Assembly: GCA_011364985.1 (NCBI GenBank)
Contig: RDOC01000003.1
Location: forward strand, 62,001-126,000
Direction of reading: 5' to 3'
Length of the DNA: 64,000 nt
Origin: Candidatus Thorarchaeota archaeon
GTDB taxonomy: Archaea > Asgardarchaeota > Thorarchaeia > Thorarchaeales > Thorarchaeaceae
In this document: positions 10,494-16,773 of the stretch, one piece after another
How the letters are laid out: every line of letters begins with the position of its first letter
Position numbering within the stretch: the stretch's first letter is position 1
Translations under genes and position numbers: made by a program
The notes under the pieces: generated by a model
Told to the model about the DNA's origin: nothing
Database searches by the model: none
Seen by the model: only the letters and a program-made list of their open reading frames with translations

Positions 10494-10602
10494 GGGCCCG
10501 TTGCCTAGTATGGACCAGATGGAATTTTTCCCGTCTGGGTACAAATAGGGCGCTAGCCTTCTAAGTTAGAGGTCGCCGGTTCAAATCCGGCCGGGCCCGC
10601 CA
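10494..10602 (+). tRNA. tRNA-Arg(TCT) with ~31-nt intron in the D-loop; CCA encoded
   Basis: Acceptor GGGCCCG/CGGGCCC, anticodon arm CTAGC-CTTCTAA-GTTAG, T-arm GCCGG-TTCAAAT-CCGGC; extra ACCAGATGGAATTTTTCCCGTCTGGGTACAA inside D-loop. Confidence 0.88.
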
Positions 10603-13420: not shown

Positions 13421-13554
13421 GCCTCGGTGGCCAAGTGGTTATGGCGTCTGCCTCGTAAGCAGTAGATTAGTCTCTCTGCTGAGCCAGCAGGAAAACGTTG
13501 ATTGATTACCAATCTCCGGTCGAATCGCGGGTTCGAATCCCGCCCGGGGCTCCA
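13421..13554 (+). tRNA. tRNA-Thr(CGT) with ~57-nt insertion at anticodon-stem 3' side/variable loop
   Basis: Acceptor GCCTCGG/CCGGGGC, D-arm GCCA/TGGC, anticodon arm TCTGC-CTCGTAA-GCAG, T-arm GCGGG-TTCGAAT-CCCGC, encoded CCA; total length 134 nt. Confidence 0.85.
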
Positions 13555-14234: not shown

Positions 14235-14352
14235 GCGGAGGTTGCCAAGCCTGGCCAAAGGCGCTAGGTTGAGGGCCTAGATTCTGTGGATTTTCATCAC
14301 TGAAAGGCTATCTCGTAGGAGTTCGCGAGTTCAAATCTCGCCCTCCGCACCA
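14235..14352 (+). tRNA. tRNA-Leu(GAG) with ~23-27 nt insertion in the variable arm
   Basis: Acceptor GCGGAGG/CCTCCGC, anticodon arm CTAGG-TTGAGGG-CCTAG, T-arm GCGAG-TTCAAAT-CTCGC, CCA encoded; variable region ~44 nt. Confidence 0.87.
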
Positions 14353-14928: not shown

Positions 14929-14962
14929 GTGTTCGTAGATTCAAATCCTGCCCTTCACGTCA
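14929..14962 (+). pseudogene. Decayed tRNA-Leu 3' end (T-arm/acceptor/CCA) remnant
   Basis: 23/34 matches by eye to the tRNA-Leu 3' end at 14319-14352; 10 of 11 mismatches are transitions. Confidence 0.5.
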
Positions 14963-15011: not shown

Positions 15012-15338
15012 TCAGGGTTCAGAAAGGCCGATTTCCATCACAACCCTATTCTCATTCTTGTCATATTCCGTCCAGAGAATAACGTCACGCCAATCTGATA
15101 GTGCAATCTCTGAGTGCCTTGCCAATGAAGCTTCATCACCAACAGTGAGATGGAGAAGACAGCGAAAGATACGTGGGCTGGGCTCAACCTTATACAAATC
15201 TACGAAGTGATTTTCGAAATCCTCTAGACTAGCCTCTACGGCATTAGCTCTTTCGGGTCCATAATCACTGCGGATTCGTTTTCTAATGTTGGTAGGCAAC
15301 ATTGCCATTTCTTGGTCTTTGGGGAGAGAAAAAGGCAT
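15012..15338 (-). CDS. Hypothetical protein
   Basis: 108 aa ORF, plausible composition. Confidence 0.5.
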   Translation of the reverse strand: MPFSLPKDQEMAMLPTNIRKRIRSDYGPERANAVEASLEDFENHFVDLYKVEPSPRIFRCLLHLTVGDEASLARHSEIALSDWRDVILWTEYDKNENRVVMEIGLSEP

Positions 15339-15352
15339 GAGTTAAAGAAATG

Positions 15353-15563
15353 AATGATTGGGCCCGCTCTGATACGGGGGGAGGCAACCCGTATCGTGAG
15401 AGCGGACCCTTGGAAGGAGTTGTCTTTTGAAGCCTTCGGGTTTCCGTGAGCGGGAAGAGAGGATTACAGACCGTAGAAAATGTCAACCACAGTCAATTGA
15501 GGGACGCATGGATGGCAAAGGCTCCGGGGGCGTTCGATAGTTGCCCGCTCACGCCCAATTATT
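15353..15563. ncRNA. Orphan structured RNA candidate (~210 nt, multi-helix junction)
   Basis: Closing helix AATGATTGGGC/GCCCAATTATT (10 of 11), hairpin CCGCTCTGATACGGG...CCCGTATC-GTG-AGAGCGG, UUCG-capped GAAGCC-TTCG-GGTTTC, perfect 9-bp GTGAGCGGG/CCCGCTCAC; no ORF. Confidence 0.55.
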
Positions 15564-15780
15564 GAAGGGATTCTTACAAATTAGAATTGACTTAGGTCAA
15601 TATAAGGTCGTACTGATGATCTGTTTCATTCTTGAACTCCGAAACTGTCAAAGCCTAGTAAACATCAGACACATAGCATACGTGTTATGCTTGTAGGTTT
15701 GTAGCTTGCCAACGATAAGCTATAAAGGAGGCATATGGAGGGACAAGAGCAAACAGGAGTGAAGCAAAACGGCAGCCCCA

Positions 15781-16773
15781 AAGATAGGCATCATTGGCGC
15801 AGGCAATATGGGACGGATTCATGCACGAATATTGAGTAATATGCGTGCCTTGGCGGGTGTAGCAGACAAGGAATTCGAGAAGGCTGAACAAGTCGCTGGT
15901 ATGTACGGGTCACCAGCCTACCGTGAATATTCAGAGATGATAGAAGAACTGAAACTTGATGGGATTATTATTTCAACTCCCACTGGTACGCATGCGGAGA
16001 TTGCAGAAGCCATAGCCAAGAAATATGATGGCCTTCGAGGAATTCTGATCGAGAAACCATTGGCTAGTACCCTAAGAGATGCAAAGAAAGTAGCAGACAC
16101 CCTTAGGAAGAGAAGGGTTTGTACACTCATTGGCCATTCAGAGATATATAATCCCGTTGTGGAACGCGCTCTTGAGCTAATCCACAGGGGTGAAATCGGG
16201 CAACCTCACACTGTCATTCATGACAGAAGAGGTTATGTTCAACCTTCAAGAATAGCATCCCTTGGGGACGTTTTTGAGGACATCGGTGTGCACGATTTCG
16301 ATATCATGTCAAGAATAAGCAAGGGTCCTGCAAAGCTCTATGCCCAGTGCAATACAAGAAGTGGAATATTGAACATGGGCACTGTCATGGTCAAATTTGA
16401 AAGTGGTACTGAACACTTCTTCCATCTCTCTCGCCAGTATGTCGGTAGAAAACGCAGTATGGACGTTTCGGGCTCAAAGGGTACTTTGTCTTTGGACCTC
16501 TTCGGGCAAATCATAAAGATTCAAGACCTTGATGAAGCCCCAGAAGCAGACGGTCGGACTTTGAGCTTGCCGGAACGTGGGGCAACAATAAAGGTCTACG
16601 GGGAGCCCGTTCAACAAGTCATTACTGATTTTCTGAATTGCATAGAAACGAGTCAACCACCGAAAGTGGGGCTTGATGATGGATTACTTGCCCTCGAAAT
16701 CGTTGAGGCAGCCAGAAAGAGTGCCAAGGATGAGAAGCCAATAGATATCAACATTCAATCTAAGCATCTATGA
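15781..16773 (+). CDS. Gfo/Idh/MocA family oxidoreductase
   Basis: KIGIIGAGNMGRIHARI Rossmann; EKPLA; N-terminus lies upstream of the track's ATG at 15808. Confidence 0.85.
   Translation, partial: KIGIIGAGNMGRIHARILSNMRALAGVADKEFEKAEQVAGMYGSPAYREYSEMIEELKLDGIIISTPTGTHAEIAEAIAKKYDGLRGILIEKPLASTLRDAKKVADTLRKRRVCTLIGHSEIYNPVVERALELIHRGEIGQPHTVIHDRRGYVQPSRIASLGDVFEDIGVHDFDIMSRISKGPAKLYAQCNTRSGILNMGTVMVKFESGTEHFFHLSRQYVGRKRSMDVSGSKGTLSLDLFGQIIKIQDLDEAPEADGRTLSLPERGATIKVYGEPVQQVITDFLNCIETSQPPKVGLDDGLLALEIVEAARKSAKDEKPIDINIQSKHL

What the first reader, a model, noticed from the sequence alone, without database searches (positions are those of the whole stretch)
15353..15563. Orphan ~210-nt structured RNA candidate
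Seen directly: AATGATTGGGC (15353-15363) against GCCCAATTATT (15553-15563), 10 of 11 pairs; hairpin CCGCTCT+GATACGGG (15364-15378) with CCCGTATC-GTG-AGAGCGG (15388-15405), 15 bp with one 3-nt bulge; GAAGCC-TTCG-GGTTTC UUCG-type hairpin (15429-15444); GTGAGCGGG (15446-15454) against CCCGCTCAC (15544-15552), perfect and abutting the closing helix. This nested junction is in GC-rich DNA with no convincing ORF. I could not match the conserved cores of SRP RNA, RNase P, 5S, C/D or common riboswitches. Inference: a lineage-specific ncRNA or a long leader for the downstream oxidoreductase.
Basis: partly seen in the sequence, partly recalled or inferred. Interest (0 to 1): 0.72.

Follow-up and report, generated by a model that had tools for sequence, protein, structure and literature searches.

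The report
Conserved Asgard small RNA, opposite strand
The structured stretch is a real RNA gene, conserved at one spot beside an oxidoreductase gene in a family of Asgard archaea; it appears to be read from the opposite strand to the one first proposed, and its exposed C-rich loops could block ribosome-binding sites of other messages.

Summary
The inverted repeats exist at the stated coordinates and fold better than shuffles, with no Rfam match. RNase P and SRP RNAs lie elsewhere in this genome. Relatives show that the element is real. Upstream of the orthologous oxidoreductase, about 35 loci of this GTDB family hold a structured element, most with a strong hairpin (GGACCCACCC/GGGTGGGTCC) and a C-rich, CCUC-bearing loop and linker. 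A covariance model built without the window finds the window copy at 36 bits (next-best window hit 10.6). The hairpin covaries. The strand in the finding is probably wrong: a TATA/BRE box beside the element scores better on the minus strand in 31 of 35 loci, and folding z-scores, wobble pairs and U-runs also favour minus. The gene is thus probably a ~230-nt RNA from about 15577 to 15346, minus strand, divergent from the oxidoreductase and not its leader. It is detectable only in this family: 25 of 47 genomes by the model, 10 of 13 genera if place and promoter count, deleted as a unit in 3. Best mechanistic guess: a trans-acting small RNA whose exposed GCCUC/CUCC segments pair with Shine-Dalgarno sites. 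Only anatomy supports that; no transcript, target or binding is shown.

The parts
15594..15610 (-). BRE/TATA promoter of the RNA: CGACCTTATATTGACCT; TATA proper CTTATATT 15599-15606
   Evidence: Oriented promoter matrix: minus 7.2, plus -1.4 in the window; minus better in 31 of 35 loci; position
15346..15577 (-). Predicted RNA, about 230 nt; 5' end inferred at ~22-25 nt from the TATA box, 3' end at the U-rich stretch after the hairpin
   Evidence: Relatives at the same place; fold z -3.7; ends are inferred, no transcript data
15360..15409 (-). 3'-terminal hairpin: P1 15399-15409 with 15360-15370, 3-nt bulge 15396-15398, P2 15388-15395 with 15371-15378
   Evidence: Hold-out model R2 hit 15434-15346, 36.1 bits; covariation in relatives; fold
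15379..15387 (-). Hairpin loop UUGCCUCCC, conserved GCCUC
   Evidence: GCCUC (GAGGC on plus) in nearly all members; unpaired probability ~0.97
15410..15428 (-). C-rich unpaired linker CAAAAGACAACUCCUUCCAA (relatives: GAAGACAACUCCCUCCCUC)
   Evidence: Alignments A3/A4; unpaired in the minus MFE fold
15445..15553 (-). 5' stem module closed by CGUGAGCGGG (15553-15544) with CCCGCUCACG (15454-15445); sequence not conserved between genera
   Evidence: Fold; other genera have different stems at this place
15339..15359 (-). U-rich sequence after the hairpin (AAUCAUUCAUUUCUUUAACUC), possible terminator
   Evidence: T-runs of 4 or more follow the hairpin in 15 of 35 loci on minus, 0 of 35 on plus; the window copy itself has runs of 3 before the 108-aa start codon
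15808..16773 (+). Divergent neighbour: GFO/IDH/MocA oxidoreductase (orthologs mark the locus); own TATA box CTATAAAGG just upstream
   Evidence: Pfam PF01408 and others; orthologs in 44 of 47 family genomes
15012..15338 (-). 108-aa gene directly downstream of the RNA on the same strand; not a constant neighbour
   Evidence: No Pfam match; found in 4 of 47 family genomes, beside the RNA only here and in L016

Best explanation
A stand-alone small RNA gene on the minus strand (about 15577 to 15346), transcribed from its own TATA/BRE promoter, divergently from the oxidoreductase gene, and ending in a strong hairpin followed by U-rich sequence. The molecule has a variable 5' stem module, an unpaired C-rich linker (CUCCUUCC here) and a terminal hairpin with a GCCUCCC loop. 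It most likely acts in trans: the exposed GCCUC/CUCC segments pair with purine-rich Shine-Dalgarno regions (AGGAG, GAGGT, GAGGC, GGAGG) and modulate translation of one or several messages. Shown here by sequence comparison: conservation, synteny, hairpin covariation, promoter orientation, accessible C-rich segments. Inferred: transcription, RNA ends, anti-Shine-Dalgarno action, targets.
For: Syntenic homologs upstream of the orthologous oxidoreductase; model R1 finds 25 of 47 family genomes at E <= 1.6e-10, one copy each except G029; hold-out model finds the window copy at 36.1 bits, E 1.4e-8, next 10.6; covariation 0 of 300 nulls and pair counts; minus-strand promoter in 31 of 35 loci, absent with the RNA in the loci that lack it; fold z -2.96 minus vs -1.84 plus over 35 loci; 8 minus-only vs 2 plus-only wobbles and T-runs 15 vs 0; unpaired bases 38% C and 8% G, CCUC-type 5-mers unpaired 0.80 vs 0.53 for other C-rich 5-mers, exposed in 34 of 35 loci, and they complement the genome's enriched pre-start 5-mers.
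Against: No transcript data. Start regions are only slightly better partners than for shuffled segments, and there is no co-variation with the oxidoreductase leader. The window's UUCG hairpin and outer helix fit the plus strand better (G.U on plus, A.C on minus). A protein-coding stretch in another family scores 30 bits with the model, so the score alone is not decisive. The promoter matrix is small (19 sites) and partly aligned by eye.
Confidence: 0.4

Rival explanations
1. A conserved minus-strand RNA, but a structural or protein-binding RNA (scaffold or sponge for a C-rich or U-tail-binding protein such as an Lsm or KH protein) and not an antisense regulator.
For: Very conserved P1 arms and C-rich loops with a fast-changing 5' module; weak preference for start regions; no target found.
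Against: The exposed motifs match the complements of the genome's Shine-Dalgarno 5-mers.
Confidence: 0.33
2. A plus-strand RNA: stand-alone, or processed from a transcript with the tRNA-Leu upstream.
For: Outer helix and UUCG hairpin of the window fit plus; the plus fold has z -3.2; one pseudoknot-like match GAGGCAA/UUGUCUU with a compensated change in L036.
Against: Promoter orientation, wobble pairs, fold z-scores and T-runs all favour minus; outer helix and UUCG hairpin are absent from relatives and the pseudoknot fails in half the family.
Confidence: 0.15
3. A cis-acting leader (riboswitch or attenuator): for the oxidoreductase on plus, or for the 108-aa gene on minus.
For: The oxidoreductase is a constant neighbour; in the window and L016 the 108-aa gene follows the RNA.
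Against: A separate TATA box lies between the element and the oxidoreductase, and the box next to the element faces away. On minus, downstream neighbours vary: convergent tRNA-Leu, the 108-aa gene, other ORFs. The 108-aa gene is in only 4 of 47 family genomes.
Confidence: 0.06
4. A DNA-level feature only: an operator, a G-quadruplex-prone promoter element or an integration scar, with no RNA product.
For: P1 arms form a near-perfect dyad; several relatives carry GGGTGGGTCCGAGGGAGGG on plus; the locus lies beside a tRNA gene with integration-like fragments.
Against: Arm spacing varies from 23 to 35 nt with a covarying inner stem; the window copy lacks the G-rich string; single copy per genome.
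Confidence: 0.06

Closest known systems
Helicobacter pylori RepG small RNA (PMC8295292)
   Same: A small RNA that targets a G-rich stretch of an mRNA leader (abstract of PMC8295292); from memory it uses a C/U-rich loop of its terminator hairpin, as proposed here.
   Different: Bacterial, unrelated in sequence; its target is experimentally known, here none is.
C-rich-motif small RNAs of Firmicutes (B. subtilis RoxS, PMC5419742; S. aureus IsrR, PMC9410917)
   Same: Unpaired C-rich motifs facing Shine-Dalgarno regions (from general knowledge of these RNAs; the papers were listed by search, not read).
   Different: No sequence relation; archaeal host; the function here is inferred only.
Archaeal trans-acting sRNAs, e.g. 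Methanosarcina mazei sRNA162 (PMC3510493)
   Same: Archaeal intergenic RNA that pairs with target mRNAs (abstract of PMC3510493).
   Different: Different lineage, and no C-rich hairpin family is known to me; target pairing there was tested experimentally.
Archaeal RNase P RNA and SRP RNA (RF00373, RF01857)
   Same: Structured archaeal RNA genes.
   Different: Both are found elsewhere in this genome.

Membership tests
The syntenic RNA family described here | P1/P2 terminal hairpin with GCCUC loop and C-rich linker, found by a model built without the window | tested here: met
   R2: 36.1 bits, E 1.4e-8, best in the window by far
The syntenic RNA family described here | Located between the tRNA-Leu region and the divergent oxidoreductase, with a minus-strand TATA box | tested here: met
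The syntenic RNA family described here | Compensatory changes in the hairpin | tested here: met
   an undirected scan of 16 sequences had too little power
Any Rfam family | Score at or above the gathering threshold | tested here: not met
   Window and 12 relative loci, where only tRNAs match
RNase P RNA / SRP RNA | Is the genome's copy of the gene | tested here: not met
   Those genes lie on contigs C11 and C15
Anti-Shine-Dalgarno (C-rich-loop) small RNAs | C-rich motifs unpaired and complementary to the Shine-Dalgarno consensus | tested here: met
Anti-Shine-Dalgarno (C-rich-loop) small RNAs | Start regions preferred as partners over controls | tested here: inconclusive
   Slight preference, within about 1 sd of shuffled segments
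Anti-Shine-Dalgarno (C-rich-loop) small RNAs | Regulation of a target by base pairing | not testable with these tools
   Needs experiment
Cis-regulatory leader (riboswitch/attenuator) | A conserved gene directly downstream on the same strand without an intervening promoter | tested here: not met
   Minus: downstream neighbours vary; plus: separate TATA box before the oxidoreductase

The most novel reading that the evidence does not exclude
A lineage-wide Asgard regulator RNA that acts as a general anti-Shine-Dalgarno RNA on many messages, possibly within a ribonucleoprotein of its own, and would be among the first trans-acting riboregulators described in the archaea closest to eukaryotes.
Probability: 0.2. 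Interest if true: 0.8.

Novelty: new variant of a known kind. Interest (0 to 1): 0.6.

Why it matters
The paper searches here returned nothing that describes such an RNA family in Asgard archaea (open-licence papers only). A single-copy, syntenic, covarying RNA gene with its own promoter, seen in 10 of 13 genera of one family, gives a concrete molecule and a strand to look for in transcriptomes. Its exposed C-rich loops make a testable claim about translational control in these organisms.

Tried and rejected
DNA search in the genome and genus: only 14-25-nt chance matches, coding DNA in the one inspected relative. RNase P and SRP RNA: present elsewhere. Plus-strand pseudoknot GAGGCAA/UUGUCUU: compensated in L036 but fails in half the family. 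Phylum-wide model hits outside the family: G112 and G114 are a 34-codon coding stretch on the opposite strand, with mostly third-position differences between the two; G070 lies inside a gene I read as the glycine dehydrogenase subunit; taken as chance. A conserved small peptide in the RNA: frames do not survive the indels (read by eye). Undirected covariation scan of 16 sequences: too little power. Matching between the RNA and the oxidoreductase leader: none. K-mer search for promoters upstream of ORFs: start sites too uncertain, so tRNA, RNase P and SRP promoters were used.

Full report
What is in the sequence. The plus-strand stretch 15340-15575 folds at -88.1 kcal/mol, z -3.2. No Rfam family matches it, even at relaxed thresholds. 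It is single copy in the genome. RNase P RNA and SRP RNA are found on other contigs, so it is neither.

Lineage. The genome encodes a two-domain gelsolin whose best solved relative is 2DGel3 (7c2g, 330 bits), far ahead of the Heimdall and Loki gelsolins. That 2DGel3 is a Thorarchaeota protein is from memory and could not be confirmed here. The held set has 47 genomes of the window's family and 231 of its phylum.

Relatives. DNA search failed within the genus, so synteny was used. The oxidoreductase 15808-16773 (GFO/IDH/MocA) has orthologs in 44 of 47 family genomes. The stretch upstream of it carries a related structured element in most of them: arms GGACCCACCC / GGGTGGGTCC around an inner hairpin with a conserved GAGGC (GCCUC on minus), followed on plus by GAGGGAGGGAGTTGTCTTCTGAAG or a variant. 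The window shares NGAGGCAA and GGAAGGAGTTGTCTTTTGAAGC. Model R1 (26 sequences) finds the element in 25 of 47 family genomes at E <= 1.6e-10 (one more at 0.046), one strong copy each apart from G029, which also has two oxidoreductase copies. In the phylum-wide search the only matches outside the family lie in coding sequence and are treated as chance. Because R1 contained the window, R2 was built without it. R2 finds 15434-15346 on the minus strand at 36.1 bits, by far the best hit in the window. A caution: a coding stretch in another family scores 30 bits with R2, so membership rests on score, position and promoter together.

Covariation. In the hairpin, 93.6% of cells pair on alignment A3 (28-54% when slid), with 8 pairs changed on both sides. 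In the minus alignment without the window, P1 pairs in 100% of cells and 5 pairs are changed on both sides. A directed test against 300 tree-based null alignments (substitutions re-placed along a FastTree tree, G-test with average-product correction; my own script, not R-scape) gives a summed score of 53.8 against -0.3 +/- 15.8, and none of 300 reaches it. An undirected scan of 16 sequences was not significant.

Strand. To the right of the element 35 loci have a TATA-like box; the loci whose tRNA-Leu abuts the oxidoreductase have neither element nor box. An oriented matrix was built from promoters of tRNA, RNase P and SRP RNA genes (several aligned by eye). The box scores higher on the minus strand in 31 of 35 loci, mean 4.2 vs -0.5; in the window it is CGACCTTATATT within 15594-15610. 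Its distance to the element is nearly constant, while no comparable conserved promoter block precedes the plus-strand 5' end. Fold z-scores are better on minus (mean -2.96 vs -1.84, Wilcoxon p 2e-5, homologs not independent). Wobble pairs are 8 G.U on minus against 2 on plus, and T-runs of 4 or more follow the hairpin in 15 of 35 loci on minus against 0 on plus. Against this, the window's UUCG hairpin and outer helix fit plus better. I put minus at about 0.8.

Anatomy. The layout is tRNA-Leu(+) > < RNA(-) < TATA | TATA > oxidoreductase(+); in this window a PrcB-domain ORF and the 108-aa gene lie between the tRNA and the RNA. The window RNA would start near 15577, form a 5' module closed by a 10-bp stem (15544-15553 / 15445-15454), continue into an unpaired C-rich linker (15410-15428), then the terminal hairpin 15360-15409 with loop UUGCCUCCC, and end in U-rich sequence. 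The 5' module differs greatly between genera; C-rich segments and a terminal hairpin recur. Divergent versions (L019, L021, L027, L031, L035, L042, L046, L053, L054) are recognised by place, TATA box and C-rich loops, not by the model. With them the gene is in 10 of 13 genera. In three genera (loci L022, L024, L026, L029, L039, L041) tRNA-Leu abuts the oxidoreductase, and RNA and TATA box are gone together.

Mechanism. Unpaired bases over 35 loci are 38% C and 8% G. CCUC-type 5-mers are unpaired at 0.80 against 0.53 for other C-rich 5-mers, and are exposed in 34 of 35 loci. The 5-mers enriched before start codons in this genome are AGGAG, GAGGA, GAGGT, GGAGG and GAGGC among others, the complements of those loops. 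This suggests pairing with Shine-Dalgarno sites, as in bacterial C-rich-loop RNAs (RepG, PMC8295292, as the closest analogue in action). It is not proven: start regions pair only slightly better than with shuffled segments, and the neighbouring oxidoreductase is not a favoured target. A protein-binding role is the main rival.

Confidence by step: conserved RNA gene 0.87; minus strand 0.8; stand-alone and not a leader 0.8; anti-Shine-Dalgarno action, given such an RNA, about 0.5.

Noticed in passing
window 14235-14352 and ~14930-14962; L014, L015, L034, L038: An intron-bearing tRNA-Leu gene is followed by small gene cassettes (a PrcB-domain ORF here) and then fragments that resemble the tRNA 3' end (TCAAATCTCGCCCTCCGCACCA in relatives, degenerate here). 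This looks like repeated integration at the tRNA-Leu 3' end, between the tRNA and the RNA gene.
   Followed up: partly
window 15612-15720; L049, L052 and others to the right of the TATA box: Between the two divergent TATA boxes a block such as CATGAAAGTAAGCGGCAATTTTC is conserved within subgroups; it may be a regulator site shared by the RNA and the oxidoreductase.
   Followed up: no
window 15012-15338 (-); L014, L015, L016: A 108-aa protein without a Pfam match, found in only 4 of 47 family genomes, in each case near a tRNA-Leu gene: a probable cargo gene.
   Followed up: partly
L089 1493-1581 (-); L090 8-96 (-): A 34-codon ORF (MAAYSPDPPPRLDPRHWRITCLYRDDGSFDIEQD in L089) conserved with mostly synonymous changes in two genomes of another family of the phylum; it produced chance hits of the RNA model.
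   Followed up: partly
L028, L034, L038, L044 (plus strand of the element): GGGTGGGTCCGAGGGAGGG fits a G-quadruplex motif in many relatives, but not in the window copy.
   Followed up: no
window 13421-13551 and 10537-10599: Rfam finds an intron-sized tRNA and a borderline tRNA that the default ARAGORN run missed; the first is read as tRNA-Thr when introns are allowed.
   Followed up: no
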